From Paramacrobiotus metropolitanus (Eukaryota; Tardigrada; Eutardigrada; Parachela; Macrobiotidae), in NCBI RefSeq assembly GCF_019649055.1, contig NW_026570227.1, positions 1,922,001 to 1,986,000 of the forward strand: 64,000 nt of DNA, written 5' to 3'. Made by a program: the position numbers and the translations under genes. Position 1 is the stretch's first letter, and each line of letters opens with the position of its first letter. This document shows, piece after piece, positions 1,513-44,629 of the stretch. A model generated the notes under the pieces. It ran no database searches. It was not told the DNA's origin and was given only the letters and a program-made list of their open reading frames with translations.

Positions 1513-4500
1513 ATGCCGCGGTATCGGCCACTATTGGCGGATACCAATCAGATCAGTTACCAGAACACCGTCGCCGTCCGCAACGCTGACGACACGTGGT
1601 GGCTGGGATACATTCAGGATATTGACGGCGACGGCGCCTTCATCCACTTCGACTCCACAACCGTGGACGCTCGCTGGATACCCATGAGCGACGTTTGGCC
1701 ACTGGCCTCGTATGTCTGGCACACCGAGGACTTTACAGCAGGACACCCAAGCGTCCCCGTCTTCGCGGCACTGCGCGATCCAGATAACGGACCATGGCGT
1801 TTCCGGCCGGCCGTTCTGCTGGACAGCGTCACCGGGTGTGGGGTGCCATGTGCTGGATGCTGTACATCCAGATCGCCGGCAGTCCCGTTCGTCGTCAGCT
1901 GGTCCACGAAGCACAAGTGGTCAGTGCGCTGCCCCCCGCCACTCCTCCGCTGCGCTACAGCAAGCACTGCATCCTCTTTGCTCGTGCCCACGCCCTTCTC
2001 AGCGAGCCGTCCGATGCGTTCCGCCTCGTCAGGCACGTGCATGACGCTCTACTCTGGTCTAACTTCGGGGGTCTGCTTGACAGCGGTCGGTTCTACCTGC
2101 GCGTCGAACCGGAGGGCTGCTTGTTTCTCATTGCCAGTCGGGCACCCGACGTGCCAACGACACAGCAGATGTCGGAAATCCTGTCGAAAATCCTGGAAAC
2201 TCATTTGACCAGCCGCGCCAGTCTGCCGCCGATCAGCCAGCGAACACTGCGGGCAAGCCAACATCTCCCTTGCCAAGCCGGTTAGCAAGCTGTCGTTAAT
2301 GCTTTTTTTTAACTTGTCCGGTAACTTCCTACGTAAAGGTACAGAGTATATACTAAGCGCGATGTTTGGGCCCGCGCTCAAGCTCGGACTTGGACTCGGA
2401 CTTGGACTACTAACAGTGGCGAATCTAGGCGGGTTTCAGAGGGGGAGCCAGAGAACTCATACCAAAGGGGGGAGTATTCTCTCGATTTTTCGGCGACCTC
2501 CACCGTAAAAAATTTCGCAACGTACCCCCCCCCCTCTTGCGAATTTTTTTGACGTCCAGGTTACGGGGGGCCATGGCTGCTCTGGCACCCCCCTAGACGC
2601 GCCACTGACTACTAAAACTTGGACTTGGACTTCACTTGGACTCTAAAACTCGGACTTTGCTTGGACTCTAAAACTCGGACTTTATGACTTAGACTTGGAT
2701 TTAGGCGTTTCTCATGTCTTCCTACGTTTCTTCATGTTTTCTCAGGTTTCTTAGCTTTCTTAGGTTTTTTCGGTTTCTTTGGTCTTCATAGTTTTCTTAG
2801 GTTTCTCAGGTTTCTGAGGCTTCTTTGGTTTTCTTAGGTTTCTTAGGTTTGTTGGGTGTTCTTAGGTTTCTGAGGTTACAAACATTTCTTAGGTTGTCTA
2901 GGTATTCTTGGTTTTCTGAAAAAATTAAGGAACCTAAGAAGCCTAGGGAACCTAAGAAACCTAAGAGACCTAAAAAACCTAAGAACACCTAAAAAACCTG
3001 AGAAACTTAAGAAACCTGAGAAACCTAAGAAAACATAAAGAAACGTAAGAAGACTTGAGAAACATAAGAAACGCTTAATTCCAAGTCCACGTCATAAAGT
3101 CCAAGTTTAAATATGACTTTATTTCTCAATATGTACAAAGCGAGCTTCACTCAACAAATCAGATCAAATGAAGAATTTGTCCCAATTAACATGGGAAGGG
3201 ACTGTGCACAATACACTCATAGCATTAGTCCAAGTTTTAGTGTCCAAGTAAAGTCCGAGTTTTAGAGTCCAAGTCAAGTCCGAGTTTTAGAGCCCAAGTG
3301 AAGTCCGAGTCCAAGTTTTAGTGTCCAAGTAAAGTCCGAGTTTTAGAGTCCAAGTCAAGTCCGAGTTTTAGAGCCCAAGTGAAGTCCGAGTCCAAGTTTT
3401 AGTAGTCCAAGTCCGAGTCCAAGTCCGAGTTTGAGCATGGGCCCTGTGATGTATGCATGTATGTAAAGAAGTACGTAAATAAGTATGACTTTAATATTAT
3501 ACAGGTTGACAGGAGCGAGCTTGCAGGATGACTAAATATGAAGTACGACAAGTGGCAAGCAAACACGCAGTAACAGAGTTGCTAAGTACAACAGGAATAA
3601 TACGTAAACGTAGATTCACGAGAACACCACAGGCCCGATGTGGGCCCTATGGCACCACACTGTGTCGTGAATTTGTATATTTCGCTGTACTGATTCGTCC
3701 GAAATTAGCGGGCAAGGTCGTACACATAAATGGGTTCGTATTAGTGACAGGAAGCTGTTCTTCTTAGGTACGGAATCGGATGCATTGATGGGGACTGTAC
3801 GCATCCGGGATTTGCCGCCTTGCCTGTTGAGCGACATTTTGTCGCATTTGAACCTGCACTCCCAAATGAAAGTTAAACGGTACGGGCATTTCGGCGTTCG
3901 CTGATTTCTTTCCAAAAACAGTAGCGATGCTTTCGTTCCTTGCACTTGCTTGTAAAAGTCTGAGTACTGCGGGAATATGTCATCTTTTCTCCTAGAGTGT
4001 GTGCCTTATGGCGGTTGCTGTTGAACAGCGCGACAGTCCTGCAGCACGTCAGCATCTCCTTCGACAGTTGCTGGGAACTGCAAGTAGACAGCGATAACTG
4101 CTTCAAACTGGCCACCCTGCTCGACCGCTCCATCGGCTCGGGGACACGCAGTCTCACCGTGTTGAACATTCTCCCATCAGACAGCAATTTCCTCTTGTCT
4201 GCCATCTTACGGGCCAGCGCCATTAAGCTGCCTATCCTGGTACTCGCCGATCACGTCTACATCCGAAGAAAATCGCGACACGTGATTCACCGACCACAGT
4301 CGCGCATCACGCACCTGGCAGCGGATGATATCACGCGCTACGAACGTTTTTGCAACGTCGTCTGTCTTCGCAACTGGACCGTCTCTGACCTGTTTGGTCA
4401 GCACGTCTACGATGCCTTTCTGAATAACTGGTTTAATGAGCCCCACTCCGGCGTGACCTCGCGTCCGCTGCCAGCGCACGAGCGCGAGTGGATGCTGCCG

Positions 4501-6759: not shown

Positions 6760-7819
6760 TTTTATTGTTTGTTATAACTAATCAGGATTTTCGATATTTT
6801 TACTTTCTTCAAATACCTTTTATAATTACAGTAGTTCACGATATTCTCCTGGATTTTACGGACGTTATACAATTTAATGATAGGGGTTTCCGGTTTCGTG
6901 AGTCTGGGATTTTTTATGTTACAAAGGGGATACCAAAAGTTTTTTTCCCTAGTTTTTAACTTCCCCCACAAACTCACTTTACCCTTTCCACCCATATTTT
7001 TACTAATGCAAATCATTAACTAATTAATGGAAATTATAATTTAGGTTTTGCTCATTCCGGCTGGGGAATTCGTCACGAAGACTGTTGCATGGCGGCTTCT
7101 GGCAACCTATTTTCCGCTCTTCTCGCAGCATATTAAAATTCTCCTCGTTCATTCTTCGAGAAGCACAAAACGCTTTTATGTACCAAATTCAAGTTTTTTT
7201 TGAGGAAAGGATCCAAAGTTCGGAACAGCAGGAAAGTGGAAAATCAAAAAACTTGATGGCCTATAGAATAAACTTATTATTTTAATTTGAGAACGTTTAA
7301 TAACGTTTCATCATCACGATAATAACCAGGGAATGGTAAGCTTTCAATATTAGAAATTATAGGCAAAAACGTTGAGAGGGAGAGAAGTGGTGATGAAACA
7401 ACTGAAATTTTTGGAAAGGGAGTGAGTGGTTAGGCTGCCCAAAGCATCACCGACTAATTGATTTTTCGTCTGGTTCGTTCTTATCGATAGCTAAAATTTT
7501 TTTCCTTCGATAGCTTAGGTTATGCAACAAAAAATATATCGTTGATGTATTACATCATCTGGAAAGCAGACAAAATAGGGAAAAAAACTTTTGGTATGTC
7601 CTTTGTGTATGTACGCACATATTCACGAATAAGTTTAACTGCTTTATATTTAAAGTTAATCGTGTTCCATGTATGTACTTGTAGCTGCTGTACATTTTTT
7701 CTGGAGACTGAATTATTGTTTTTGGCTTTTTTACTGCATATTGGCAAATAGAGGATTTGGATGGAGGTCCGCTGCCTGAAAACTTCTTTCGCGCGTGATT
7801 GCTAGCGTGCGAGCGACCT
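6760..7819. other. AT-rich spacer
   Basis: Low-complexity AT-rich DNA with no exon, RNA or clear repeat that I can support. The right edge (from 7820) is the single-copy parent of the satellite unit. Confidence 0.5.
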
Positions 7820-7918
7820 CCCTGCTGATGCCATCATGTCTGGGCAGGCGTCCGTCTGATCGTTTGCACCGCATTCCATGTCTCCCGAATTCGTTCACCC
7901 ATTCGCCGTAATTGCATT
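7820..7918 (+). repeat. Single-copy parent of the satellite's host-derived 99 bp (left flank of the retrotransposon)
   Basis: Starts CCCTGCTGATGCCATCATGT and ends AATTGCATT at the 5' LTR. The same 99 bp form the larger part of every unit of the array at 13107-21487. The last five bases GCATT are the left target-site duplication of the LTR element. Confidence 0.9.
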
Positions 7919-8078
7919 TGTAGTGTATGTAATATTAAGTACTGTAGTACTTAATATGTGCTTAGCAACGTTGCAGTAGTTGTGAGTTTACCTTCATGTT
8001 TTCTTATGTTTACGTATTCATTCTATCATCAGCCAAGCTGTCGTTCACATCTAATAAATACATATTAGATACTTCACA
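7919..8078 (+). repeat. 5' LTR
   Basis: 160 bp, TGTAGTG...TTCACA. It contains a near-perfect palindrome at 7932-7957 (12-bp arms, 2-bp centre) and an AATAAA signal near its 3' end. The left palindrome arm ends at 7943, exactly where the LTR part of the satellite unit ends. Confidence 0.95.
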
Positions 8079-8079
8079 T

Positions 8080-8097
8080 TGGCGTGAAGGATGATAG
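8080..8097 (+). other. Primer-binding site
   Basis: TGGCGTGAAGGATGATAG lies just after the 5' LTR and starts with the usual TGG. I could not name the priming tRNA. Confidence 0.5.
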
Positions 8098-8126
8098 CAA
8101 TTTTTAAAAGTTTTTAATCTGGAATA

Positions 8127-11100
8127 ATGGCTACCACTGGTAATACGGATGGTACTAGTACGAGTACCGTTGTCCGTACGTCAGTGACGCAGACCAGGCA
8201 GGATGTGGCCGGAGAAGAAGCGGATTCTACCGGATTGCCCCGCCTGGCGAAGTTCGATCCAGAGGTCATCAAACTGGAGACCTGGCGGATCCAGTTTGAC
8301 AGTCACCTGTCCTCCCATGGGATGGCTACGGACAGGAAGAAGCCGCTACTACTGGGATCGTTGGCTCCTAAGGCAATGGAGATGCTAGCCTCCATGTGCC
8401 GTCCGAAGGATCCTGGCGCGTTCACCTTCGACGAGCTGTACAGTAAGCTCAAGGTCGCTTATAGTAAGCGTACGAACGTGCGAGTCGAACGAGCAAATTT
8501 TTTCAGCATTAAGCAGCAGGTAGGTCAGACGCTGTTAGATTTCAGCAATAGCCTCAGGAATCAAGCAGTTAAATGCGATTTTCCAGATACATTTGTTGAC
8601 GACCAGCTTTGTGCTGCGTTCATGTCAGGTGTAGCGAGCGAGACGACGCGTAGATACCTGTACTCATTGCCAGTCTCCTCAGTGGAGAAGTTCGATACGC
8701 TGTACGAAGAAGCCGATAAGTACGAGCAGAGTCGTGCAGATGCAAAGCAATCAGGGTCTAAGTCACAGTCGCCAGATGTATCCGCGATAAAGCGCGGAGG
8801 TTTTCATGGGCGTGGCCGAGGTCGTTTTAAAGGTCGCGGTGGTAACAATAATGTTGGTCGTAAATCAGCATGTTTTGGCTGTGGTTCTACCAGTCATTTA
8901 AAGCCAGATTGTCCACACAAGAATGCAAAGTGCTATAACTGTGGAAAGACAGGGCATACTGCCAAGGTGTGTAAGGCACCGAAGAAGGAAGGCAGAGATC
9001 AGAGAAGGACTAACTATGTCAGAACTCAGGAGTACGATGTACTGAGGACAGGTCCAGTGACGCCCACGTCAATATTTGTACCGTTAACGATGAACGGTAA
9101 GAATGTGTCAATGGAGTTAGACACAGGATCGTCAGTGACAATCATGAGTAAGCTGACATGGCGCAAGATTGGAGCGCCGAAGTTGAGAAAGGCAGATGAA
9201 GTACTGCACAGTTTTACTGGTCATCAGATACAGCTAATGGGTACTGTCGAGGTACAGGTACATTATAGAGGCGTAATGAAAACGCTGAAGGCGCTAGTGA
9301 CAGAGCGTGGTTGTAGCATAATTGGCCGTGACTGGATATCTCAGTTAGAGCTTAATGCGTTGAGTTTGAAGCAGTTGCAGCAAGGTAACGTCTGCACAGT
9401 AACTGAGAAGCTGAAGTTGGCGCATGTGCTACAGAAGCATAAGGCTGTATTCCGAGATGAGCTCGGGTGTTGCAAGAATTTTAAGGCGCATCTGTATCTC
9501 AAGGAGAATGCGAGGCCAGTGTTTTGTAAAGCCAGACCCGTGCCGTTTGCTTTGAAGGAAGAAGTTGAAGAAGATATTGACCGGTTAGTCAGTATAGGTG
9601 TACTAACACCCGTTGATCATGCCGAATGGGCAGCGCCGACTGTTTACATAAAGAAACCGAAGAAGAAGGTCAGGATATGTTCTGATTTGAGCACCGGTCT
9701 GAATGATGCACTTGATGTGCACAAGTATCCGCTACCGCACCCAGATGAGCTTTTTGCCAAATTAAATGGCGGTGTAGTGTTCTGCAAGATTGATCTGAGA
9801 GAAGCTTATAATCAGATCCCAGTTGACGACGAGAGATCGAAGCTGCTGGTTATTAATACCCATAAGGGTTTGTTTAAATACAACCGACTGCCGTTCGGGG
9901 TGGCCAGTGCGCCTAGTATATTTCAGCAGCTCATTGAAAGTATCTTGCAAGGGTGTGAAGATGTAGCAATATATCTGGATGATATTATTGTAAAAGGGCG
10001 CAACAGAGAAGAGTGCCTACGAAAGTTAGATATGGTACTGGAGAAACTTGAGCAAGCTGGCTTAACGGTCAAGAAAGAGAAATGTGAGTTTCTGGTTGAT
10101 TCAGTTGAGTACTTGGGATTCATCATTGATAAAGCTGGCAGACGTATTTCGAGTGAGAAAACGAAAGCTGTTGTTGAAATGCCAGCACCACAGGACGTAG
10201 GACAGTTACGTTCGTTCCTGGGTATGATCAACCATTATGCAAAGTTTCTGCCAAATTTGTCGAGCAGATGCAGTTGCTTTTATAAGCTACTCAAGCAGTC
10301 AGTGCAGTGGAAATGGGATTCAGGTTGTCAGAAAGAATTTGTGTCGCTAAAAGATGATTTGACGAAAGCGACTCAGTTAGTGCATTTCAACCCTGAATTG
10401 CCGTTAGTGTTGGCAGCTGATGCATCGAAGTATGGTATAGGTGCAGTGTTGAGCCACAGGATGCCTGACGGTAGTGATAAGCCGATAGCGCACATATCGA
10501 AGACGTTGACATCAGCTGAGCAGAATTACGGTCAAATTGAGAAAGAGGCTCTCGGTTTAGTATTTGGTGTAAAACGGTTTCACCAATATCTGTACGGTCG
10601 AGAGTTCGTCTTGTTAACTGACCATAAGCCGCTGGTTACGGTGTTCGGAAGCAAGAAAGGTGTGCCAGTAGTTACTGCAAACAGGCTGCAGCGGTGGGCC
10701 ATTGTGCTCATGGGTTACACATTCCGAATCGAGTACCGTAGAACGTCAGATTTTGGTCAGGCAGATGGTCTCAGTAGACTACCGATTAAGTCATCAGATT
10801 TGTTTGACGAAGAAGATTTGGGCAAGACAGAAGTGGTCAATTTGGTAGAAAGTGAGATTCTGTCTAGTATGCCAGTATCAGCTGATGTGATTCGTGCGGC
10901 TAGTCTAAAGGACAGCGAGATTGAACGAGTCAAGCAGTTTCATTTAAACGGATGGCCAAACAAGGTTCCGACAGAGTTAGTGGCGTACAGTCGCCGGAAG
11001 AACGCATATTCAATATGCGATGGTTGTTTGTTGTGGAATAACCGAGTAGTTATCCCCAGTTCGTTACGTGCACAGATACTCAAGTACTTACACAGTACGC

Positions 11101-12524
11101 ATACAGGCGTAGTAAAGATGAAAGCGGAAGCGAGAAGCCACGTTTGGTGGCCTGGTATTGACGAAGCGGTAGAGAAAGTAGCCGGGGAATGTGAGATCTG
11201 TTCGATGTTAGCGAAAGATCCGAGAAAGGTACCGTTACAGCAGTGGCCGGTCCCACAGGGCCCGTGGCATCGGTTACACATAGATTTTGCGGGACCGTTC
11301 AAAGGTCGCATGATACTTGTAATAGTCGACGCATTCTCGAAGTGGCTAGAAGCGTTTGAGGTCAAGAGAGCCGATACCAGTAATGTGATTTCCATCATGG
11401 AAAGTCTGTTTGCGCGATATGGACTGTGTACTGACATCGTCAGTGATAACGGACGTCAGTTCACGTCGGAACAGTTTCAACAGTTTTGTACTGAAAGAGG
11501 GATTAAGCATATGACTATAGCCCCGGGACACCCGCAGTCCAATGGGCAAGCCGAGCGCTACGTTGATGTAGTGAAGAAGGGCATCGAAAAGGGCATGCAT
11601 TCCGGGAAAACGTTTGCCGATGCGCTGCGAGAGTTCCTCAGTCGTTTTCGTACTGTACCAAATGGTACTACAGGAAAGGCTCCGTGCGAGTTGTTTTTGA
11701 ATCGAAAGGTCAGGACAATATTAGACCTGGTTCATCCTGTAGCGCAGGTGCATGAGAAGGCCCGAGACAGGCAGAAGCGCAATTTTGATAAGCGCACTAA
11801 GGCGCGCGTGTTCACAACGGGACAATTGGTCCAAGTAAACGACTTCCGGTTGAACAGTGCTGATAAGTGGGCTGCAGGGCAGCTGGTAAAACCCATCGGT
11901 AAAACGATGTGGGAAGTTAAAGTAAACGGTCAAGTGTGGCGAAGGCATGCTAACCAGATGCTACCACGCTATTGGTTGACCGCCGAAGAGCACGCAGAGT
12001 CGCAGATGGCGGCGAGTGCACAGCGAACAAAGCCCGTCCCGATGCTACAACCGGTAGAGGTTGCGACGCAGCGCGAGCGTAAGGCGTCAGAGGCGCGACG
12101 CCTTGAGGCTGCGCCAAAGGTGCGACGTGAACCCGCGGCACCAGTTGAAGAAGCGCGACGCCTTGAGGCTGCGCTTGAGGCGCGACGCCTTGAGGCTGCG
12201 CTTGAGGCGCGACGTGATACTGTGGCGCCAAAACCAGATCAAGTAAGTATGCAGGCTGCACCGCAGCCTGTGCCCCCTCTTGTTGTTGCAGGTCCAGACC
12301 GTGGACCACCACCCCCAGGGAAGGCGGAAGTCGTGGCTCCCAAGGCCGAAACGAAACCTCCGAAGAAGCCATCGGAGAAGGCTGCTGCGAAGCCACCGAA
12401 AGTTCCGAAGGCTCCGATTCCGGAAGCAGAACTCCGCCGAAGCGATCGGACAAGGAAAATGCCGGATTACCTCCTCAAGGATTATGTGATGAAAAAGATT
12501 TTTGTAGAATTTCCGCCGATTTAA
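8127..12524 (+). CDS. Gag-Pol polyprotein of the Ty3/gypsy element
   Basis: One frame of 1,465 codons. Order of domains: capsid-like Gag; two CCHC zinc knuckles at residues 249-262 (C-F-G-C...) and 269-282 (C-Y-N-C-G...); aspartic protease with D-T-G-S-S at 332; reverse transcriptase with Y-L-D-D at 616-619; RNase H starting near D765; integrase with an H2C2 zinc finger (about 987-1022) and a D1053/D1107/E1143 triad whose last spacing is the canonical 35. The C-terminal 180 residues are Ala/Pro/Arg-rich with repeats of A-R-R-L-E-A-A. The order PR-RT-RH-IN places it in Ty3/gypsy, and its sequence style recalls Mag/K02A2.6-like elements. Gag and Pol share one frame without a frameshift, so the Gag:Pol ratio must be set by processing. 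All catalytic residues appear intact. Confidence 0.95.
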   Translation: MATTGNTDGTSTSTVVRTSVTQTRQDVAGEEADSTGLPRLAKFDPEVIKLETWRIQFDSHLSSHGMATDRKKPLLLGSLAPKAMEMLASMCRPKDPGAFTFDELYSKLKVAYSKRTNVRVERANFFSIKQQVGQTLLDFSNSLRNQAVKCDFPDTFVDDQLCAAFMSGVASETTRRYLYSLPVSSVEKFDTLYEEADKYEQSRADAKQSGSKSQSPDVSAIKRGGFHGRGRGRFKGRGGNNNVGRKSACFGCGSTSHLKPDCPHKNAKCYNCGKTGHTAKVCKAPKKEGRDQRRTNYVRTQEYDVLRTGPVTPTSIFVPLTMNGKNVSMELDTGSSVTIMSKLTWRKIGAPKLRKADEVLHSFTGHQIQLMGTVEVQVHYRGVMKTLKALVTERGCSIIGRDWISQLELNALSLKQLQQGNVCTVTEKLKLAHVLQKHKAVFRDELGCCKNFKAHLYLKENARPVFCKARPVPFALKEEVEEDIDRLVSIGVLTPVDHAEWAAPTVYIKKPKKKVRICSDLSTGLNDALDVHKYPLPHPDELFAKLNGGVVFCKIDLREAYNQIPVDDERSKLLVINTHKGLFKYNRLPFGVASAPSIFQQLIESILQGCEDVAIYLDDIIVKGRNREECLRKLDMVLEKLEQAGLTVKKEKCEFLVDSVEYLGFIIDKAGRRISSEKTKAVVEMPAPQDVGQLRSFLGMINHYAKFLPNLSSRCSCFYKLLKQSVQWKWDSGCQKEFVSLKDDLTKATQLVHFNPELPLVLAADASKYGIGAVLSHRMPDGSDKPIAHISKTLTSAEQNYGQIEKEALGLVFGVKRFHQYLYGREFVLLTDHKPLVTVFGSKKGVPVVTANRLQRWAIVLMGYTFRIEYRRTSDFGQADGLSRLPIKSSDLFDEEDLGKTEVVNLVESEILSSMPVSADVIRAASLKDSEIERVKQFHLNGWPNKVPTELVAYSRRKNAYSICDGCLLWNNRVVIPSSLRAQILKYLHSTHTGVVKMKAEARSHVWWPGIDEAVEKVAGECEICSMLAKDPRKVPLQQWPVPQGPWHRLHIDFAGPFKGRMILVIVDAFSKWLEAFEVKRADTSNVISIMESLFARYGLCTDIVSDNGRQFTSEQFQQFCTERGIKHMTIAPGHPQSNGQAERYVDVVKKGIEKGMHSGKTFADALREFLSRFRTVPNGTTGKAPCELFLNRKVRTILDLVHPVAQVHEKARDRQKRNFDKRTKARVFTTGQLVQVNDFRLNSADKWAAGQLVKPIGKTMWEVKVNGQVWRRHANQMLPRYWLTAEEHAESQMAASAQRTKPVPMLQPVEVATQRERKASEARRLEAAPKVRREPAAPVEEARRLEAALEARRLEAALEARRDTVAPKPDQVSMQAAPQPVPPLVVAGPDRGPPPPGKAEVVAPKAETKPPKKPSEKAAAKPPKVPKAPIPEAELRRSDRTRKMPDYLLKDYVMKKIFVEFPPI

Positions 12525-12573
12525 AATTGTTATTTATTCCTGTTTTATTCAGTCCGTGTGTTTTTATCTTATT

Positions 12574-12582
12574 GTGGGGGAG
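12574..12582 (+). other. Polypurine tract
   Basis: GTGGGGGAG directly abuts the 3' LTR, the usual position for priming plus-strand DNA synthesis. Confidence 0.6.
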
Positions 12583-12742
12583 TGTAGTGTATGTAATATT
12601 AAGTACTGTAGTACTTAATATGTGCTTAGCAACGTTGCAGTAGTTGTGAGTTTACCTTCATGTTTTCTTATGTTTACGTATTCATTCTATCATCAGCCAA
12701 GCTGTCGTTCACATCTAATAAATACATATTAGATACTTCACA
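12583..12742 (+). repeat. 3' LTR
   Basis: 160 bp with no difference from the 5' LTR that I can find. It is followed by GCATT, the right target duplication. Confidence 0.95.
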
Positions 12743-12930
12743 GCATTCATGAGGAGTGACCACTGAAGCTCCGTTTCGTTAGAGGCAACGATGTTAAAGG
12801 ACAAAAATGTAATTGTAATCAGCCTGATTCAGCGTCAAGTTACAGATAGAGCAGCAGAGAGACAAAGGCAATCAAGGTCTTCCATTCAAAAGACTGCGCT
12901 ACACTCAGGCCATATGCATTTACCCTAGAC
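12743..12930 (+). repeat. Right-flank segment, copy 1
   Basis: 188 bp from GCATTCATGAGGAGTGACC to ACCCTAGAC. The same sequence follows the lone LTR at 21648-21835, and 117 bp of it recur at 12986-13102. It is the host DNA to the right of the original insertion site. Confidence 0.9.
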
Positions 12931-12985
12931 TGTGAAGTATCTAATATGTATTTATTAGATGTGAACGACAGCTTGGCTGATGATA
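12931..12985 (-). repeat. Inverted 55-bp LTR 3' end fragment
   Basis: TGTGAAGTATCTAATATGTA... is the reverse complement of the last 55 bp of the LTR. It interrupts the right-flank segment at ACCCTAGAC, a point where the 21.8-kb copy runs on uninterrupted. Confidence 0.9.
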
Positions 12986-13102
12986 CAACGATGTTAAAGG
13001 ACAAAAATGTAATTGTAATCAGCCTGATTCAGCGTCAAGTTACAGATAGAGCAGCAGAGAGACAAAGGCAATCAAGGTCTTCCATTCAAAAGACTGCGCT
13101 AC
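12986..13102 (+). repeat. Right-flank segment, partial copy 2
   Basis: 117 bp matching 12786-12902, from CAACGATGTTAAAGG to CTGCGCTAC, then joined abruptly to a truncated satellite unit. It marks the left breakpoint of the array. Confidence 0.9.
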
Positions 13103-13106
13103 GCTA

Positions 13107-16100
13107 CCGAATTCGTTCACCCATTCGCCGTAATTGCATTTGTAGTGTATGTAATATTAAGTACTCCCTGCTGATGCCATCATGTCTGGGCAGGCGTCCG
13201 TCTGATCGTTTGCACCGCATTCCATGTCTCCCGAATTCGTTCACCCATTCGCCGTAATTGCATTTGTAGTGTATGTAATATTAAGTACTCCTGCTGATGC
13301 CATCATGTCTGGGCAGGCGTCCGTCTGATCGTTTGCACCGCATTCCATGTCTCCCGAATTCGTTCACCCATTCGCCGTAATTGCATTTGTAGTGTATGTA
13401 ATATTAAGTACTCCCTGCTGATGCCATCATGTCTGGGCAGGCGTCCGTCTGATCGTTTGCACCGCATTCCATGTCTCCCGAATTCGTTCACCCATTCGCC
13501 GTAATTGCATTTGTAGTGTATGTAATATTAAGTACTCCCTGCTGATGCCATCATGTCTGGGCAGGCGTCCGTCTGATCGTTTGCACCGCATTCCATGTCT
13601 CCCGAATTCGTTCACCCATTCGCCGTAATTGCATTTGTAGTGTATGTAATATTAAGTACTCCCTGCTGATGCCATCATGTCTGGGCAGGCGTCCGTCTGA
13701 TCGTTTGCACCGCATTCCATGTCTCCCGAATTCGTTCACCCATTCGCCGTAATTGCATTTGTAGTGTATGTAATATTAAGTACTCCTGCTGATGCCATCA
13801 TGTCTGGGCAGGCGTCCGTCTGATCGTTTGCACCGCATTCCATGTCTCCCGAATTCGTTCACCCATTCGCCGTAATTGCATTTGTAGTGTATGTAATATT
13901 AAGTACTCCTGCTGATGCCATCATGTCTGGGCAGGCGTCCGTCTGATCGTTTGCACCGCATTCCATGTCTCCCGAATTCGTTCACCCATTCGCCGTAATT
14001 GCATTTGTAGTGTATGTAATATTAAGTACTCCCTGCTGATGCCATCATGTCTGGGCAGGCGTCCGTCTGATCGTTTGCACCGCATTCCATGTCTCCCGAA
14101 TTCGTTCACCCATTCGCCGTAATTGCATTTGTAGTGTATGTAATATTAAGTACTCCTGCTGATGCCATCATGTCTGGGCAGGCGTCCGTCTGATCGTTTG
14201 CACCGCATTCCATGTCTCCCGAATTCGTTCACCCATTCGCCGTAATTGCATTTGTAGTGTATGTAATATTAAGTACTCCCTGCTGATGCCATCATGTCTG
14301 GGCAGGCGTCCGTCTGATCGTTTGCACCGCATTCCATGTCTCCCGAATTCGTTCACCCATTCGCCGTAATTGCATTTGTAGTGTATGTAATATTAAGTAC
14401 TCCTGCTGATGCCATCATGTCTGGGCAGGCGTCCGTCTGATCGTTTGCACCGCATTCCATGTCTCCCGAATTCGTTCACCCATTCGCCGTAATTGCATTT
14501 GTAGTGTATGTAATATTAAGTACTCCCTGCTGATGCCATCATGTCTGGGCAGGCGTCCGTCTGATCGTTTGCACCGCATTCCATGTCTCCCGAATTCGTT
14601 CACCCATTCGCCGTAATTGCATTTGTAGTGTATGTAATATTAAGTACTCCCTGCTGATGCCATCATGTCTGGGCAGGCGTCCGTCTGATCGTTTGCACCG
14701 CATTCCATGTCTCCCGAATTCGTTCACCCATTCGCCGTAATTGCATTTGTAGTGTATGTAATATTAAGTACTCCTGCTGATGCCATCATGTCTGGGCAGG
14801 CGTCCGTCTGATCGTTTGCACCGCATTCCATGTCTCCCGAATTCGTTCACCCATTCGCCGTAATTGCATTTGTAGTGTATGTAATATTAAGTACTCCCTG
14901 CTGATGCCATCATGTCTGGGCAGGCGTCCGTCTGATCGTTTGCACCGCATTCCATGTCTCCCGAATTCGTTCACCCATTCGCCGTAATTGCATTTGTAGT
15001 GTATGTAATATTAAGTACTCCTGCTGATGCCATCATGTCTGGGCAGGCGTCCGTCTGATCGTTTGCACCGCATTCCATGTCTCCCGAATTCGTTCACCCA
15101 TTCGCCGTAATTGCATTTGTAGTGTATGTAATATTAAGTACTCCTGCTGATGCCATCATGTCTGGGCAGGCGTCCGTCTGATCGTTTGCACCGCATTCCA
15201 TGTCTCCCGAATTCGTTCACCCATTCGCCGTAATTGCATTTGTAGTGTATGTAATATTAAGTACTCCCTGCTGATGCCATCATGTCTGGGCAGGCGTCCG
15301 TCTGATCGTTTGCACCGCATTCCATGTCTCCCGAATTCGTTCACCCATTCGCCGTAATTGCATTTGTAGTGTATGTAATATTAAGTACTCCTGCTGATGC
15401 CATCATGTCTGGGCAGGCGTCCGTCTGATCGTTTGCACCGCATTCCATGTCTCCCGAATTCGTTCACCCATTCGCCGTAATTGCATTTGTAGTGTATGTA
15501 ATATTAAGTACTCCCTGCTGATGCCATCATGTCTGGGCAGGCGTCCGTCTGATCGTTTGCACCGCATTCCATGTCTCCCGAATTCGTTCACCCATTCGCC
15601 GTAATTGCATTTGTAGTGTATGTAATATTAAGTACTCCCTGCTGATGCCATCATGTCTGGGCAGGCGTCCGTCTGATCGTTTGCACCGCATTCCATGTCT
15701 CCCGAATTCGTTCACCCATTCGCCGTAATTGCATTTGTAGTGTATGTAATATTAAGTACTCCCTGCTGATGCCATCATGTCTGGGCAGGCGTCCGTCTGA
15801 TCGTTTGCACCGCATTCCATGTCTCCCGAATTCGTTCACCCATTCGCCGTAATTGCATTTGTAGTGTATGTAATATTAAGTACTCCTGCTGATGCCATCA
15901 TGTCTGGGCAGGCGTCCGTCTGATCGTTTGCACCGCATTCCATGTCTCCCGAATTCGTTCACCCATTCGCCGTAATTGCATTTGTAGTGTATGTAATATT
16001 AAGTACTCCCTGCTGATGCCATCATGTCTGGGCAGGCGTCCGTCTGATCGTTTGCACCGCATTCCATGTCTCCCGAATTCGTTCACCCATTCGCCGTAAT

Positions 16101-19100
16101 TGCATTTGTAGTGTATGTAATATTAAGTACTCCTGCTGATGCCATCATGTCTGGGCAGGCGTCCGTCTGATCGTTTGCACCGCATTCCATGTCTCCCGAA
16201 TTCGTTCACCCATTCGCCGTAATTGCATTTGTAGTGTATGTAATATTAAGTACTCCTGCTGATGCCATCATGTCTGGGCAGGCGTCCGTCTGATCGTTTG
16301 CACCGCATTCCATGTCTCCCGAATTCGTTCACCCATTCGCCGTAATTGCATTTGTAGTGTATGTAATATTAAGTACTCCTGCTGATGCCATCATGTCTGG
16401 GCAGGCGTCCGTCTGATCGTTTGCACCGCATTCCATGTCTCCCGAATTCGTTCACCCATTCGCCGTAATTGCATTTGTAGTGTATGTAATATTAAGTACT
16501 CCCTGCTGATGCCATCATGTCTGGGCAGGCGTCCGTCTGATCGTTTGCACCGCATTCCATGTCTCCCGAATTCGTTCACCCATTCGCCGTAATTGCATTT
16601 GTAGTGTATGTAATATTAAGTACTCCCTGCTGATGCCATCATGTCTGGGCAGGCGTCCGTCTGATCGTTTGCACCGCATTCCATGTCTCCCGAATTCGTT
16701 CACCCATTCGCCGTAATTGCATTTGTAGTGTATGTAATATTAAGTACTCCTGCTGATGCCATCATGTCTGGGCAGGCGTCCGTCTGATCGTTTGCACCGC
16801 ATTCCATGTCTCCCGAATTCGTTCACCCATTCGCCGTAATTGCATTTGTAGTGTATGTAATATTAAGTACTCCTGCTGATGCCATCATGTCTGGGCAGGC
16901 GTCCGTCTGATCGTTTGCACCGCATTCCATGTCTCCCGAATTCGTTCACCCATTCGCCGTAATTGCATTTGTAGTGTATGTAATATTAAGTACTCCTGCT
17001 GATGCCATCATGTCTGGGCAGGCGTCCGTCTGATCGTTTGCACCGCATTCCATGTCTCCCGAATTCGTTCACCCATTCGCCGTAATTGCATTTGTAGTGT
17101 ATGTAATATTAAGTACTCCTGCTGATGCCATCATGTCTGGGCAGGCGTCCGTCTGATCGTTTGCACCGCATTCCATGTCTCCCGAATTCGTTCACCCATT
17201 CGCCGTAATTGCATTTGTAGTGTATGTAATATTAAGTACTCCTGCTGATGCCATCATGTCTGGGCAGGCGTCCGTCTGATCGTTTGCACCGCATTCCATG
17301 TCTCCCGAATTCGTTCACCCATTCGCCGTAATTGCATTTGTAGTGTATGTAATATTAAGTACTCCCTGCTGATGCCATCATGTCTGGGCAGGCGTCCGTC
17401 TGATCGTTTGCACCGCATTCCATGTCTCCCGAATTCGTTCACCCATTCGCCGTAATTGCATTTGTAGTGTATGTAATATTAAGTACTCCCTGCTGATGCC
17501 ATCATGTCTGGGCAGGCGTCCGTCTGATCGTTTGCACCGCATTCCATGTCTCCCGAATTCGTTCACCCATTCGCCGTAATTGCATTTGTAGTGTATGTAA
17601 TATTAAGTACTCCCTGCTGATGCCATCATGTCTGGGCAGGCGTCCGTCTGATCGTTTGCACCGCATTCCATGTCTCCCGAATTCGTTCACCCATTCGCCG
17701 TAATTGCATTTGTAGTGTATGTAATATTAAGTACTCCCTGCTGATGCCATCATGTCTGGGCAGGCGTCCGTCTGATCGTTTGCACCGCATTCCATGTCTC
17801 CCGAATTCGTTCACCCATTCGCCGTAATTGCATTTGTAGTGTATGTAATATTAAGTACTCCCTGCTGATGCCATCATGTCTGGGCAGGCGTCCGTCTGAT
17901 CGTTTGCACCGCATTCCATGTCTCCCGAATTCGTTCACCCATTCGCCGTAATTGCATTTGTAGTGTATGTAATATTAAGTACTCCTGCTGATGCCATCAT
18001 GTCTGGGCAGGCGTCCGTCTGATCGTTTGCACCGCATTCCATGTCTCCCGAATTCGTTCACCCATTCGCCGTAATTGCATTTGTAGTGTATGTAATATTA
18101 AGTACTCCTGCTGATGCCATCATGTCTGGGCAGGCGTCCGTCTGATCGTTTGCACCGCATTCCATGTCTCCCGAATTCGTTCACCCATTCGCCGTAATTG
18201 CATTTGTAGTGTATGTAATATTAAGTACTCCTGCTGATGCCATCATGTCTGGGCAGGCGTCCGTCTGATCGTTTGCACCGCATTCCATGTCTCCCGAATT
18301 CGTTCACCCATTCGCCGTAATTGCATTTGTAGTGTATGTAATATTAAGTACTCCTGCTGATGCCATCATGTCTGGGCAGGCGTCCGTCTGATCGTTTGCA
18401 CCGCATTCCATGTCTCCCGAATTCGTTCACCCATTCGCCGTAATTGCATTTGTAGTGTATGTAATATTAAGTACTCCTGCTGATGCCATCATGTCTGGGC
18501 AGGCGTCCGTCTGATCGTTTGCACCGCATTCCATGTCTCCCGAATTCGTTCACCCATTCGCCGTAATTGCATTTGTAGTGTATGTAATATTAAGTACTCC
18601 TGCTGATGCCATCATGTCTGGGCAGGCGTCCGTCTGATCGTTTGCACCGCATTCCATGTCTCCCGAATTCGTTCACCCATTCGCCGTAATTGCATTTGTA
18701 GTGTATGTAATATTAAGTACTCCCTGCTGATGCCATCATGTCTGGGCAGGCGTCCGTCTGATCGTTTGCACCGCATTCCATGTCTCCCGAATTCGTTCAC
18801 CCATTCGCCGTAATTGCATTTGTAGTGTATGTAATATTAAGTACTCCCTGCTGATGCCATCATGTCTGGGCAGGCGTCCGTCTGATCGTTTGCACCGCAT
18901 TCCATGTCTCCCGAATTCGTTCACCCATTCGCCGTAATTGCATTTGTAGTGTATGTAATATTAAGTACTCCTGCTGATGCCATCATGTCTGGGCAGGCGT
19001 CCGTCTGATCGTTTGCACCGCATTCCATGTCTCCCGAATTCGTTCACCCATTCGCCGTAATTGCATTTGTAGTGTATGTAATATTAAGTACTCCTGCTGA

Positions 19101-21487
19101 TGCCATCATGTCTGGGCAGGCGTCCGTCTGATCGTTTGCACCGCATTCCATGTCTCCCGAATTCGTTCACCCATTCGCGTCAATTGCATTTGTAGTGTAT
19201 GTAATATTAAGCACTCATGCTGATGCCATCATGTCTGGGCAGGCGTCCGTCTGATCGTTTGCACCGCATTCCATGTCTCCCAATTGTTCACCCATTCGCC
19301 GTAATTGCATTTGTAGTGTATGTAATATTAAGTACCCCTGCTGATGCCATCATGTCTGCGGGCAGGCGTCCGTCTGATCGTTTGCACCGCATTCCATGTC
19401 TCCCGAATTCGTTCACCCATTCGCCGTAATTGCATTTGTAGTGTATGTAATATTAAGTACTCCCTGCTGATGCCATCATGTCTGGGCAGGCGTCCGTCTG
19501 ATCGTTTGCACCGCATTCCATGTCTCCCGAATTCGTTCACCCATTCGCCGTAATTGCATTTGTAGTGTATGTAATATTAAGTACTCCCTGCTGATGCCAT
19601 CATGTCTGGGCAGGCGTCCGTCTGATCGTTTGCACCGCATTCCATGTCTCCCGAATTCGTTCACCCATTCGCCGTAATTGCATTTGTAGTGTATGTAATA
19701 TTAAGTACTCCTGCTGATGCCATCATGTCTGGGCAGGCGTCCGTCTGATCGTTTGCACCGCATTCCATGTCTCCCGAATTCGTTCACCCATTCGCCGTAA
19801 TTGCATTTGTAGTGTATGTAATATTAAGTACTCCCTGCTGATGCCATCATGTCTGGGCAGGCGTCCGTCTGATCGTTTGCACCGCATTCCATGTCTCCCG
19901 AATTCGTTCACCCATTCGCCGTAATTGCATTTGTAGTGTATGTAATATTAAGTACTCCCTGCTGATGCCATCATGTCTGGGCAGGCGTCCGTCTGATCGT
20001 TTGCACCGCATTCCATGTCTCCCGAATTCGTTCACCCATTCGCCGTAATTGCATTTGTAGTGTATGTAATATTAAGTACTCCTGCTGATGCCATCATGTC
20101 TGGGCAGGCGTCCGTCTGATCGTTTGCACCGCATTCCATGTCTCCCGAATTCGTTCACCCATTCGCCGTAATTGCATTTGTAGTGTATGTAATATTAAGT
20201 ACTCCTGCTGATGCCATCATGTCTGGGCAGGCGTCCGTCTGATCGTTTGCACCGCATTCCATGTCTCCCGAATTCGTTCACCCATTCGCCGTAATTGCAT
20301 TTGTAGTGTATGTAATATTAAGTACTCCTGCTGATGCCATCATGTCTGGGCAGGCGTCCGTCTGATCGTTTGCACCGCATTCCATGTCTCCCGAATTCGT
20401 TCACCCATTCGCCGTAATTGCATTTGTAGTGTATGTAATATTAAGTACTCCTGCTGATGCCATCATGTCTGGGCAGGCGTCCGTCTGATCGTTTGCACCG
20501 CATTCCATGTCTCCCAGAATTCGTTCACCCATTCGCCGTAATTGCATTTGTAGTGTATGTAATATTAAGTACTCCTGCTGATGCCATCATGTCTGGGCAG
20601 GCGTCCGTCTGATCGTTTGCACCGCATTCCATGTCTCCCGAATTCGTTCACCCATTCGCCGTAATTGCATTTGTAGTGTAATATGTAATATTAAGTACTC
20701 CTGCTGATGCCATCATGTCTGGGCAGGCGTCCGTCTGATCGTTTGCACCGCATTCCATGTCTCCCGAATTCGTTCACCCATTCGCCGTAATTGCATTTGT
20801 AGTGTATGTAATATTAAGTACTCCCTGCTGATGCCATCATGTCTGGGCAGGCGTCCGTCTGATCGTTTGCACCGCATTCCATGTCTCCCGAATTCGTTCA
20901 CCCATTCGCCGTAATTGCATTTGTAGTGTATGTAATATTAAGTACTCCTGCTGATGCCATCATGTCTGGGCAGGCGTCCGTCTGATCGTTTGCACCGCAT
21001 TCCATGTCTCCCGAATTCGTTCACCCATTCGCCGTAATTGCATTTGTAGTGCACCCATTCGCTGTAATTGCATTTGTAGTGTATGTAATATTAAGTACTC
21101 CCTGCTGATGCCATCATGTCTGGGCAGGCGTCCGTCTGATCTCCCTGCTGATGCCATCATGTCTGGGCAGGCGTCCGTCTGATCGTTTGCACCGCATTCC
21201 ATGTCTCCCGAATTCGTTCACCCATTCGCCGTAATTGCATTTGTAGTGTATGTAATATTAAGTACCCTGCTGATGCCATCATGTCTGGGCAGGCGTCCGT
21301 CTGATCGTTTGCACCGCATTCCATGTCTCCCGAATTCGTTCACCCATTCGCCGTAATTGCATTTGTAGTGTATGTAATATTAAGTACTCCCTGCTGATGC
21401 CATCATGTCTGGGCAGGCGTCCGTCTGATCGTTTGCACCGCATTCCATGTCTCCCGAATTCGTTCACCCATTCGCCGTAATTGCATT
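13107..21487 (+). repeat. LTR-junction satellite array, about 67 units of 123/124 bp
   Basis: Tandem units made of 99 bp equal to 7820-7918 plus 25 bp equal to the first 25 bp of the LTR (7919-7943). Two length variants alternate irregularly: 124 bp (ACTCCCTG) and 123 bp (ACTCCTG). Units are otherwise almost identical. Diverged or rearranged units lie near 19170-19350 and 20640-21270. The first unit is truncated (starts CCGAATTC at 13107). The last runs straight into a full LTR. Every unit has a 62-codon minus-strand open frame as a by-product of repetition. Confidence 0.97.
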
Positions 21488-21647
21488 TGTAGTGTATGTA
21501 ATATTAAGTACTGTAGTACTTAATATGTGCTTAGCAACGTTGCAGTAGTTGTGAGTTTACCTTCATGTTTTCTTATGTTTACGTATTCATTCTATCATCA
21601 GCCAAGCTGTCGTTCACATCTAATAAATACATATTAGATACTTCACA
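21488..21647 (+). repeat. Solo LTR closing the array
   Basis: Complete 160-bp LTR of the same element with GCATT on both sides. There is no internal region. Left and right host flanks are those of the full element at 7919-12742, so it is a second allele-like copy of the same insertion, reduced to one LTR. Confidence 0.92.
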
Positions 21648-21835
21648 GCATTCATGAGGAGTGACCACTGAAGCTCCGTTTCGTTAGAGGCAACGATGTT
21701 AAAGGACAAAAATGTAATTGTAATCAGCCTGATTCAGCGTCAAGTTACAGATAGAGCAGCAGAGAGACAAAGGCAATCAAGGTCTTCCATTCAAAAGACT
21801 GCGCTACACTCAGGCCATATGCATTTACCCTAGAC
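21648..21835 (+). repeat. Right-flank segment, copy 3
   Basis: 188 bp that look identical to 12743-12930. It continues into unique sequence (CAGTTTTGTCC...). Confidence 0.9.
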
Positions 21836-22925: not shown

Positions 22926-23490
22926 AATAACGCCATAACGGCATAAACGAAATCATAATTCGAGCGTTATGCAATGCTGGCATTGAGTCGTATCCGGAGC
23001 CTATTGACATTTTGCGCGAAAATGGAAAGCGCCCGGATGGAGCCACGCGCTGGAAGTGGTACCGGGGACAGCCTTTAGTATGGGACGTGACCTGCAGAGA
23101 CACTATGGCAGATTCGTACATCGACGCGACCTCAAAGTGCGCTGGCGCCGCCGCCGAACTGGCTTTCAGAGACAAGATGGAAAAGTACAAGTCGATTATT
23201 GATCGCTGCTATTTTGTCCCGTTTGCATGCGAAACTTTTGGCACTTGGTGTAAGACCGGCAATGTTTCGTTAAAGGAGATTGGGAAAATAATGTTTATGA
23301 GGACGGGCGAGAGTCGCTCCACTTGTTTTTTGTTTCAGCGTTTAAGCTTAGAGATTATGCGTGGTAATGCTATGAGTGTGTTGTGCACAGTCCCTTCTCA
23401 TGTAAATTGGGACAAATTCTTGATTTGATTGGTATCATTGAGCGAAGCTCGCTGTATAAATATTGAGAGATTAAATTTAATTTACGGTAG
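22926..23490 (+). mobile_element. 5'-truncated LINE, endonuclease domain and 3' end
   Basis: The frame from about 22930 reads R-H-N-G-I-N-E-I ... R-P-D-G-A-T-R-W-K-W-Y ... V-W-D-V-T-C, the PD..DVT core of a restriction-like endonuclease. It then runs to N-W-D-K-F-L-I and the stop at 23426-23428. The 3' untranslated tail follows (GAGCGAAGCTCGC, A-rich end). It parallels the C-terminal part of the minus-strand LINE at 28187-31009. Only the last 170 or so codons survive. Confidence 0.8.
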
Positions 23491-26290: not shown

Positions 26291-27003
26291 AGTACAGACT
26301 GTACATACGGGAAAAATGCGTAATTAAGGGTTAGGAATCACTGAGCATCCTTGGAGGCTGGTCACATAATTCATCTAAAGAGAAAACTACGGACAACACA
26401 GAGGTCACACAAAGCCCGGTACTGTGCGATCCGACGAAGAGGAACCCCGGTATCCGGTAGCCCCTCGTCGGCCGGGACGCGCGGGCACTACTCCGGGCTC
26501 TCACTGGGCAGCGAACCTTGCCCGGGATTCGCCTAACGCGGTGCCACCTGCTGTCGCGCGAGCCGTTCCTCTGAAAATTTCCCGGTTGACCGCATCTGCT
26601 CCGCTTATGCGCCACATAATTAAATGTTTGACTTAAGATGACACAACACTATTGTCCTGGGGCGGTAGAGCGTGATGGGTAACCCGAGCTTTGTGTCGGC
26701 ATCCGCGAGATTATGCCAACACTGACGCTCGCAGCTGATCATTGATTTTTTGTGGTAAACGTTTCTCTATCGAAAGCAAAACAGGTGCACTTTTATTAGC
26801 ACTTGTCACCCTGTTGCCATTGTGTTTATTGATTTTATTGTCCCACCTGTGCATCCTGCTCATCCTTGTCAACAAGTCACGCTAGCAGTTTTAATTCAAA
26901 CGGGACAACATTGATCCACCAAACAGCGTTTTAGTTCAACTTTTTCCTCGGCGCCAAACTTTCTCACGCTAAATTTCCTGGGAATGTAGCCGCGCCGACG
27001 ATA
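26291..27003 (+). promoter_or_regulatory. 5' region of GPCR gene 1 (also duplicated at 6.3 kb)
   Basis: Non-coding stretch upstream of the receptor ATG. The last 320 bp (from about 26685) are shared with the pseudogene copy at 6278-6597, so the duplicated unit included the presumed promoter and 5' untranslated region. No classical TATA box is obvious. Confidence 0.4.
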
Positions 27004-43218: not shown

Positions 43219-43244
43219 TTAATGTAAATTGTAAAGGTCATGCC

Positions 43245-44629
43245 ATGGTCAATACAACGGTAAACGCCACGCTGATCGAGGTGTCCTTCCCGGTGCTCCT
43301 CTCCTGGTTCGTCCTGACCTCCGTCCTCCAGACCCTCGGGGGCCTGGCCATCATCCTCCTCTTAATCGCCATGTCCCGCCTCGGCCGATTACACACCGGC
43401 TCCGGGATCCTCATCGCCCACTACCAGCTGCTCCTCCTGCTCATGTGCTTCCTCCAGGCGCCCCTCAACAACACCACCTTCTTCCTCCTGCGCCTCCACC
43501 ACCTCTGACCCTCCCCTGCCCCTTTATCTACTTCCTCTACGTCCTCAATTACTCCCTTATCGCCTGGGCCGACGCCGCGCTGGCCTTGAACCGGTTCACG
43601 GCCATCCTCCTCCCGCACCACTACCCGCGCGTCGCCTCCCGCCGGGCGGTGGTGCTACAGCTGGCCGTGTGTTGGACAATCGCCCTGGGGTGCGCGCTGC
43701 CGCAGTACCTGTCGCCGCGCATCCAGGTGGCGCTGCTGCCGTCCGGGGCCTGTAATATCGTCCGCTCTGAGGGGCGGTTGTTGTTTATGTTGGTGCTGCT
43801 GTCGCTGTATGTGCCGCTGGGCGCCGTGGGATTTTTATATAGCTTCGTCTTTCTCAGCCGGTACTGCAAGGTGTGCCGCAACCGGGTGATGGGTTTGAAT
43901 GGGATTGTGGATGCGGTGTTTGTGGAGAAGATGCAGCGGCGCATCGCCACGGCGAAGATACTGTTCTACTCGTTTATCTGGTATTGCGTGTGTTTTATTC
44001 CGCTGTCGTTTATACCGTTGCTGTTGGCTGTGCCGCTGAACAGCGATATTCGAATTTTGCTCTGCACCAAGACCGTTTTTTATCTGGCTTTTGCTGCCGA
44101 ACCGGTAAGGATTAAAAAATTACCTAGAGTAGTACATAATTACGCTAAGAAAAGGCGACAGTAGAAAAGTACATTAATACGACAAAATAACTCTGTTAAT
44201 TTTATTTATATAAAGAATTTTTTGCCGGGTACGTACTGTATAAATAATTAATAAATTATAAACCCATGTATGAATAAACGCGACAGGTTCAGTTTGCATA
44301 AATGCACATAAATCTGTGCCCTGCAACCTTTACAGTTCACAGTGCTTCATGCTGCGTTTTGAAGCATCATTAAAAGCTTTAATCAAACGGTTCTCGGTTT
44401 ATTGATGCCGGTTTCTGCGTAGGCTTTCTTTTACGCGATGAGTGGCCAATATCGTCGCGAAGCGCGGAATATCCTGATCCAGTTATGGCAGTGGCTGGTC
44501 TGCAGAAGGGTCCGCTTCCGGAAGAATGCGCCGTCCCCGGAAAAGACCGTGGATTTGAACGAAAGCCGCTTAACGCTAACGAGACCGACGGCGTACTTCC
44601 GGTCGGGATTCGATGTCAGCCGCTATTAA
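43245..44629 (+). CDS. Rhodopsin-like GPCR 3, frame-broken
   Basis: Exon 1 is 43245-44104 and exon 2 is 44423-44629 (CCG|GTAAGG..GCGTAG, phase 0; stop 44627-44629). The start frame covers an N-glycosylated N-terminus (N-T-T, N-A-T), segment 1 and part of segment 2. It breaks near 43500: the frame stops at L-H-H-L, while P-F-I-Y-F-L-Y-V-L-N-Y continues in a frame one base shorter. Downstream are W-A-D-A-A-L-A-L-N-R-F (D-R-Y position), P-S-G-A-C, segments 4-7, and E-P split by the intron from A-F-F-Y-A-M-S. The intron position equals that of receptors 1 and 2. It is either a young pseudogene or a one-base error. A MITE ends 26 bp before the ATG, so its promoter may also be altered. Confidence 0.75.

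What the first reader, a model, noticed from the sequence alone, without database searches (positions are those of the whole stretch)
7820..21647. A satellite DNA born from a retrotransposon insertion junction
Each unit of the 8.4-kb array is 99 bp of host DNA identical to the left flank of the intact LTR element (7820-7918) plus exactly the first 25 bp of its LTR (7919-7943). The array ends in a full LTR with the same right flank. So the order flank-LTR existed first, and tandem amplification of the junction followed. The parent locus, the live element and the array all survive within 14 kb, a rare snapshot of satellite birth.
Basis: seen in the sequence. Interest (0 to 1): 0.88.

Follow-up and report, generated by a model that had tools for sequence, protein, structure and literature searches.

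The report
Satellite array born at transposon junction
A block of about 68 near-identical 123/124-base repeats was copied from the exact spot where a young retrotransposon landed inside the remains of an older mobile element, and because the parent junction still sits beside the block, this locus shows how a new satellite DNA can begin.

Summary
Array units are window 7820-7918 plus the first 25 bp of the LTR (7919-7943). The array (about 13107-21512) ends in a full LTR with the element's own right flank. Insertion came first: in 14 of 14 fetched dispersed relatives of the flank, similarity runs across the insertion point with no LTR; the element has a 5-bp target duplication (GCATT); the complete unit was found nowhere else in the 170-Mb assembly. 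Corrections: the "host DNA" is a fragment of an older dispersed transposon-like repeat, so the monomer is a composite of two mobile elements; and a scar separates element and array (188 bp right flank, 55 bp inverted LTR end, 117 bp right flank again, 4 bp, part unit). New: units end at the centre of an LTR palindrome with 12-bp arms. Joints between units vary (34 CC, 29 CCC, 4 other of 67), while six control runs show no length change where readable. Joint types lie in random-looking order, unlike most arrays simulated by block duplication. I favour repeated template switching at a palindrome-centred break; unequal exchange with a mutable joint is not excluded. Reads, other strains and the species' name were not available.

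The parts
7755..7918 (.). left flank: decayed fragment of an older dispersed repeat (7755-7802 and 7803-7918; 326-346 bp that the 14 fetched relatives carry between these two pieces are missing here)
7820..7943 (+). parent junction: 99 bp of older repeat + first 25 bp of LTR; source of the array units
7914..7918 (+). 5-bp target duplication GCATT, left copy (right copies 12743-12747 and 21648-21652)
7919..12742 (+). intact-looking Ty3/gypsy-type LTR element (zinc knuckle, aspartic protease, RT, RNase H, integrase; one open frame 8118-12524)
7919..8078 (+). 5' LTR, 160 bp, TG...CA
7932..7957 (.). palindrome in the LTR, 12-bp perfect arms with 2-bp spacer; regular array units end at 7943, the last base of the left arm
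12583..12742 (+). 3' LTR, identical to the 5' LTR
12743..12930 (+). right flank, first copy (188 bp, identical to 21648-21835)
12931..12985 (-). inverted LTR end (parent 8078 down to 8024), 55 bp, beginning at the LTR's last base
12986..13102 (+). second copy of part of the right flank (= 21691-21807), 117 bp
13103..13106 (+). 4 bp (GCTA) not assigned by the parse; with the next C they repeat the preceding GCTAC
13107..21512 (+). satellite array: part unit (parent 7885-7943), then 68 units, mostly 123 or 124 bp; the last runs on into the full LTR
19093..21265 (+). right-hand part of the array that holds all 8 one-off units (point changes, small indels, a 30-bp internal duplication, a 43-bp short unit) among regular ones
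21488..21647 (+). full single LTR closing the array, identical to the element's LTRs
21648..21835 (+). right flank with GCATT, continuing into further sequence that has no second full-length copy in the assembly

Best explanation
A young Ty3/gypsy-type LTR element inserted, with a GCATT target duplication, into a decayed fragment of an older dispersed transposon-like repeat (shown). Later the junction of the two was tandemly amplified in place to about 68 units, and the locus was rebuilt with an inverted LTR end and repeated right-flank pieces (shown). Inferred mechanism: the DNA broke or stalled at the centre of the LTR palindrome; the end that finishes ...AAGTACT re-engaged about 124 bp upstream, at the CCC that follows a CT matching the end; synthesis ran again to the palindrome centre, and the cycle repeated, so that many joints were made separately. 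This is microhomology-mediated, break-induced replication-like template switching. Synthesis finally passed through the palindrome into a full LTR and the right flank, using the other LTR or a single-LTR homologue as template.
For: Order of events: 14 of 14 fetched flank relatives bridge the empty site (8 aligned); the complete unit was found only here; target duplication. Site of the break: regular units end at the last base of the left palindrome arm; with arms of 12 or more and a spacer of at most 4, this is one of 5 distinct palindromes in the 64-kb window. Another LTR relative, C314:31708-31848, begins at LTR base 26, the same step between bases. Joints: 34 CC, 29 CCC, 4 other among 67, whereas six other homopolymer runs show no length change in the 64-66 units where they could be read; four joint forms combine ends 7942 or 7943 with restarts 7820 or 7821, and two more back-jumps go 7861 to about 7820 and 7925 to 7896, with overlaps of 0-2 bp. 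Order of joint types in the first 48 of 67 units looks random: 23 runs against 24.9 in shuffles; longest repeated word 7 against 8.75. Simulated block duplication with no or 5% joint change gave a longest word of 7 or less in 0-3.75% of runs. Scar with an inverted LTR piece and short-overlap joins. All 8 one-off units lie in the last 19 of 67, the end next to the one complete palindrome that adjoins the array.
Against: Fetched loci with a full-length LTR elsewhere show no such array, 0 of 6; this is a weak test, because none of the six keeps all 12 palindrome pairs. The hairpin folds only slightly better than shuffled sequence, z -1.28. Joint heterogeneity could be a mutable or misread C run at the joint. 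The commonest joint (123-bp type) has no overlap at all. With 20% joint change per duplication the block model gave the observed word length in 3-10% of runs, and the count of runs alone does not reject blocks of mean size 2 or more (58.5-100% of simulations reach it), so block growth is not excluded. The three-cluster version of the one-off-unit test is only 0.02. All tests were chosen after seeing the array.
Confidence: 0.55

Rival explanations
1. Same origin, but ordinary growth: one chance tandem duplication of the junction with 2-bp CT homology, then expansion by unequal exchange and gene conversion, with an early CCC/CC difference at the joint shuffled between units.
For: This is the general two-stage model of satellite formation given in the review PMC12628747 (passages). 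The overlap at the 124-bp joint is only 2 bp. In simulation the number of runs fits block growth with mean block 2 or more.
Against: Simulated block duplication leaves longer repeated words than seen unless the joint changes heavily at each step (the simulation had duplication only, no deletion or conversion). Variation sits at the joint and not in six other runs. It gives no reason for the inverted LTR piece or for the break at the palindrome centre.
Confidence: 0.3
2. A 124-bp extrachromosomal circle of the junction was amplified by rolling circle and reinserted beside the parent.
For: Unit length is nearly fixed and the 124-bp joint has a short overlap.
Against: One circle gives one joint, but 6 joint sequences are present among 67 units. 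The array continues in register into a full LTR and the right flank, which points to formation in place.
Confidence: 0.08
3. The joined structure is an assembly artefact, for example two alleles (intact element; array with single LTR) placed in tandem.
For: No reads could be examined. Neither the left flank 7400-7818 nor the right flank past 188 bp has a second full-length copy in the assembly, so only one version of the locus is held.
Against: A false duplication of alleles would repeat a long left flank, but array and element share only 99 bp of it, apart from 1-2 bp at joints. A 55-bp inverted LTR piece and a 117-bp flank piece at the join are not expected of an assembly join.
Confidence: 0.06
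4. The satellite came first and the LTR acquired or landed in it.
For: None found.
Against: Units contain LTR sequence; 27 dispersed places match only the flank part, one match each; 14 of 14 relatives fetched show the empty site.
Confidence: 0.01

Closest known systems
Composite satDNA monomers from 'TE graveyards' (hypothesis of Satovic-Vuksic, Majcen and Plohl 2025, PMC12628747)
   Same: Monomer made of adjacent pieces of different mobile elements at a nested insertion, then tandemised
   Different: The review (section 7 read) calls the origin of such monomers an open question and starts from degraded loci; here one parent is a young intact-looking element, and the parent junction survives next to the array with the joints readable
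LTR-derived satellites (Sobo of Solanum bulbocastanum, potato St3 repeats, CRM1TR/CRM4TR of maize, MALREP of Monopterus; table in PMC9659126, passages)
   Same: LTR sequence supplies part of the monomer
   Different: Only 25 of 124 bp are LTR here, cut at a palindrome centre; the remainder is the insertion target. The primary papers were not seen
TE dimers by double insertion or LTR recombination (McGurk and Barbash 2018; not held, known here from a passage of PMC12628747)
   Same: A mobile element as seed of a tandem array
   Different: The unit is not the element or its LTR but an element-target junction, with no second insertion needed
Microhomology-mediated break-induced replication and fork-stalling template switching (recalled)
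   Same: Short-overlap joins, inverted piece, small insertion, tandem copies in one structure
   Different: About 68 reiterations of nearly the same jump would be unusual (recalled); mechanism inferred from sequence only

Membership tests
TE-derived satellite DNA | Tandem array with monomer homologous to a mobile element | tested here: met
   25 bp LTR plus 99 bp of a dispersed repeat per unit
TE-derived satellite DNA | Array present at several loci or as a major genomic fraction | tested here: not met
   Complete unit found at one locus, 8.4 kb (counts are lower bounds); hence a nascent, single-locus array rather than an established satellite
Composite satDNA monomer | Monomer joins pieces of two or more different mobile elements | tested here: met
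   Flank part lies in a 1416-bp dispersed block whose antisense frame of 467 aa matches two window ORFs at 39-41%, one of them next to an RT-domain ORF; LTR part from the Ty3-type element. That the block is a mobile element is inferred from this
Ty3/gypsy-type LTR retrotransposon (the seed) | TG...CA LTRs, about 5-bp target duplication, and protease, RT, RNase H, integrase in that order | tested here: met
   protease residues 321-401, RT 511-670, RNase H 759-867, integrase 1049-1139
Helitron-borne or MITE-borne satellite | Array inside a Helitron or between terminal inverted repeats | not tested
   Array boundaries are the scar and a full LTR; no specific Helitron or MITE search was made
Rolling-circle (eccDNA) array | A single joint sequence in all units | tested here: not met
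   6 joint sequences in 67 units
MMBIR-type template switching | Joins with 0-5 bp overlap, inverted and duplicated short pieces, local sequence errors | tested here: met
   these are sequence signs only
MMBIR-type template switching | Made by replication restart from a broken end | not testable with these tools
   Needs experiments

The most novel reading that the evidence does not exclude
A palindrome carried inside an LTR makes a centre break after insertion, and repair by repeated backward template switching writes a satellite unit by unit, each joint made anew, from the transposon-target junction. Transposon families with such palindromes would then be recurrent satellite seeds whose monomer is set by where they land.
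Probability: 0.3. Interest if true: 0.8.

Novelty: new variant of a known kind. Interest (0 to 1): 0.62.

Why it matters
How a satellite first becomes tandem is usually hard to read, because the parent is lost and the units are homogenised (recalled). Here the empty-site relatives, the parent junction, the element and the array can all be read, and the joints keep a record that can separate growth models. It is a concrete case for composite satellite monomers, whose origin a 2025 review (PMC12628747) calls an open question, and it makes the palindrome-break idea testable in strains.

Tried and rejected
Satellite-first reading: rejected, because the flank's dispersed relatives show no LTR part (27 of 27 matches) and an empty site (14 of 14 fetched). 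False haplotype duplication: disfavoured, because only 99 bp of left flank is shared and no second allele is held. Higher-order repeat structure in the array: looked for in the first 48 of 67 units and not found. Rolling circle: disfavoured by joint variety. Intron-lariat template (a thought only, no call): unit ends do not read GT...AG on either strand. A second, inverted insertion of the element at 12930/12931, suggested because the inverted piece begins at the LTR's last base, was considered; only 55 bp remain, so it stays open. Hairpin folding of the palindrome as support: weak, z -1.28. Conservation of the palindrome by paired changes: not supported, one pair of 12 with changes on both sides, matched by 472 of 500 shuffles. 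Literature: searches returned no papers; McGurk and Barbash 2018 is not held. Naming the host through its mitochondrial COX1 gene failed because the tool was not reached in six tries.

Full report
WHAT IS THERE. The window is C7:1922001-1986000 of a 169.8-Mb, 533-contig assembly whose name is not given. A rhodopsin-type 7TM receptor frame and a U5 snRNA match just above its threshold suggest an animal host; the species was not identified. At 7919-12742 lies an LTR element with 160-bp LTRs (TG...CA, 160/160 identical) and GCATT on both sides. It has one open frame, 8118-12524, with zinc knuckle, aspartic protease, RT, RNase H and integrase in that order, which is the Ty3/gypsy order (recalled). 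To its right, 13107-21512 is an array of 68 units after a part unit. Start-to-start lengths are 123 bp in 33, 124 in 28, 126 in 2, and 121, 122, 154 and 43 once each, of 67. By sequence, 32 units are the 123-bp type with one C fewer at the joint, 27 equal the parent 7820-7943 (rotated) and 8 are one-off variants. The 122-bp core is exact in 60 places in 13001-21600. The last unit runs on into a full LTR (21488-21647) and the element's own right flank, 188/188 identical to 12743-12930, and then into further right-hand sequence.

ORDER OF EVENTS. The 99-bp flank part matches 27 other places in the genome at 76-91% identity; all stop at unit position 102 or before, so none shows the LTR part. I fetched 14 of the 27. 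In all 14, similarity runs without a break across the insertion point from left flank into right flank, and an alignment of the join with 8 of them shows the empty site. The target was therefore a copy of a dispersed repeat, and the LTR element is the later arrival. The repeat belongs to a block of 1416 bp in its copy L054; other copies match all or part of it. The block's antisense frame of 467 aa matches two window ORFs at 39-41% (28036-28887 minus strand; 22931-23425 plus strand), and the first lies beside an RT-domain ORF (29229-31007 minus strand). So the '99 bp of host DNA' is most likely a remnant of an older, reverse-transcriptase-bearing element, and the monomer is a composite of two mobile elements. 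The complete unit was found only here (the tool calls its counts lower bounds).

AGE. Parent and derived pieces show no difference: LTR 160/160 twice, right flank 188/188 and 117/117, parent unit and last unit 124/124. The parent flank lies outside the array, so the match is not easily explained by homogenisation among units. Insertion and amplification both look recent, but with so few bases the gap between them cannot be dated.

OTHER COPIES. The LTR search returned 15 matches: three LTRs and the inverted piece at this locus; a single LTR at C55 (99%, CAATT on both sides, no array); a partial LTR at C314; and nine LTRs at 77-78% in five other loci (C94, C6, C24, C7:1152390, C1), whose inner regions are 91-99% alike where present (C1 has 114 bp of it). 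None of the 6 loci with a full-length LTR outside this one carries such an array. The C314 stretch holds other short tandem repeats, the largest with a 203-bp period about 2.4 kb from the LTR, and no match to the unit was reported there. The LTR palindrome ATATTAAGTACT-GT-AGTACTTAATAT has 12 pairs in this LTR. Among 6 distinct sequences compared, this is the only one with all 12. One pair is changed on both sides in some sister LTRs, but shuffles do as well in 472 of 500, so conservation of the palindrome is not shown.

ANATOMY OF THE SCAR. Reading 12743 to 21700 against the two junction pieces gives: right flank 188 bp; LTR end inverted, 8078 to 8024, 55 bp; right flank 21691-21807, 117 bp; GCTA, which with the following C repeats the preceding GCTAC; parent 7885-7943; units; parent 7820-8078; right flank. 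The inverted piece begins at the LTR's last base. An assembly that had merely placed two alleles in tandem would not be expected to give this, and would repeat a longer left flank.

THE JOINTS. The left half of the palindrome ends each regular unit: the step is 7943 to 7820 (124 bp, 2-bp overlap) or 7943 to 7821 (123 bp, no overlap). Among 67 joints, 34 read ...ACTCC, 29 ...ACTCCC and 4 are different, while six other homopolymer runs in the units show no length change in the 64-66 units where their surroundings could be read. So variation is concentrated at the joint. In the first 48 units (all of the two main types; the 19 units from the first one-off variant onward were left out) joint types show 23 runs against 24.9 in shuffles, and a longest repeated word of 7 against 8.75. 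Simulated growth by block duplication gave a word of 7 or less in 0-3.75% of runs with 0 or 5% joint change per copy, and in 3-10% with 20% (400 runs per setting, kept only if 16-32 units were of type A; duplication only, no deletion or conversion). The number of runs by itself does not reject blocks of mean size 2 or more, where 58.5-100% of simulations reach 23. I read this as favouring joints made separately, not as proof. All 8 one-off units lie in the last 19 of 67, next to the one complete palindrome that adjoins the array; counted as three clusters the chance is 0.02. The C314 relative is cut at the same LTR step, 25/26.

MECHANISM. Shown: composite source, order of events, break positions, joint variety, inverted piece. 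Inferred: centre break or stall at the palindrome, and repeated restart about 124 bp upstream. The step into a full single LTR needs either LTR-to-LTR switching or a single-LTR homologue; the data do not decide. Against: related LTRs have no arrays (a weak test, since none keeps all 12 pairs); the fold is only weakly better than shuffled; the commonest joint has no overlap; and the joint C run could be unusually mutable or misread.

COMPARISON. Review PMC12628747 (section 7 read, passages) proposes that composite monomers arise from nested, decayed elements and calls their origin an open question. PMC9659126 (passages) tabulates LTR-derived satellites. PMC12692304 (passages) repeats the composite idea. 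In eight searches of the held library (listings and starts of abstracts) I saw no described case with parent junction, empty-site relatives, intact element and array together; most subscription papers are not held, so this is not a claim of absence from print. The kind (TE-derived satellite) is known; the variant (element-target junction cut at an LTR palindrome, with joint variety) is what I take to be new here.

Noticed in passing
G000:C94, C6, C24, C7:1152390, C1 (L070-L074) against window 7919-12742: Sister elements share 91-99% of the inner region where present but only 77-78% of the LTR, which suggests LTR replacement by recombination between element lineages.
   Followed up: partly
G000:C314:31708-31848 (L065): LTR relative truncated on its left exactly at LTR base 26, the palindrome step at which the array units end.
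   Followed up: partly
28036-31010 (-) and 22931-23425 (+): Pieces of a reverse-transcriptase element with a C-terminal region like that of the dispersed repeat at the array; RVT_1 matches only 29229-31007.
   Followed up: partly
2738-2914 and 2926-3072: Two 9-bp-period arrays with consensus TTTCTTAGG and TAAGAAACC, reverse complements after rotation, face to face near the left end of the window.
   Followed up: no
26935-27897 and 34048-34782: Two 7TM-receptor-like frames; the first matches 7tm_1, the second resembles it by eye only; 43235-44164 may be a third, also by eye.
   Followed up: no
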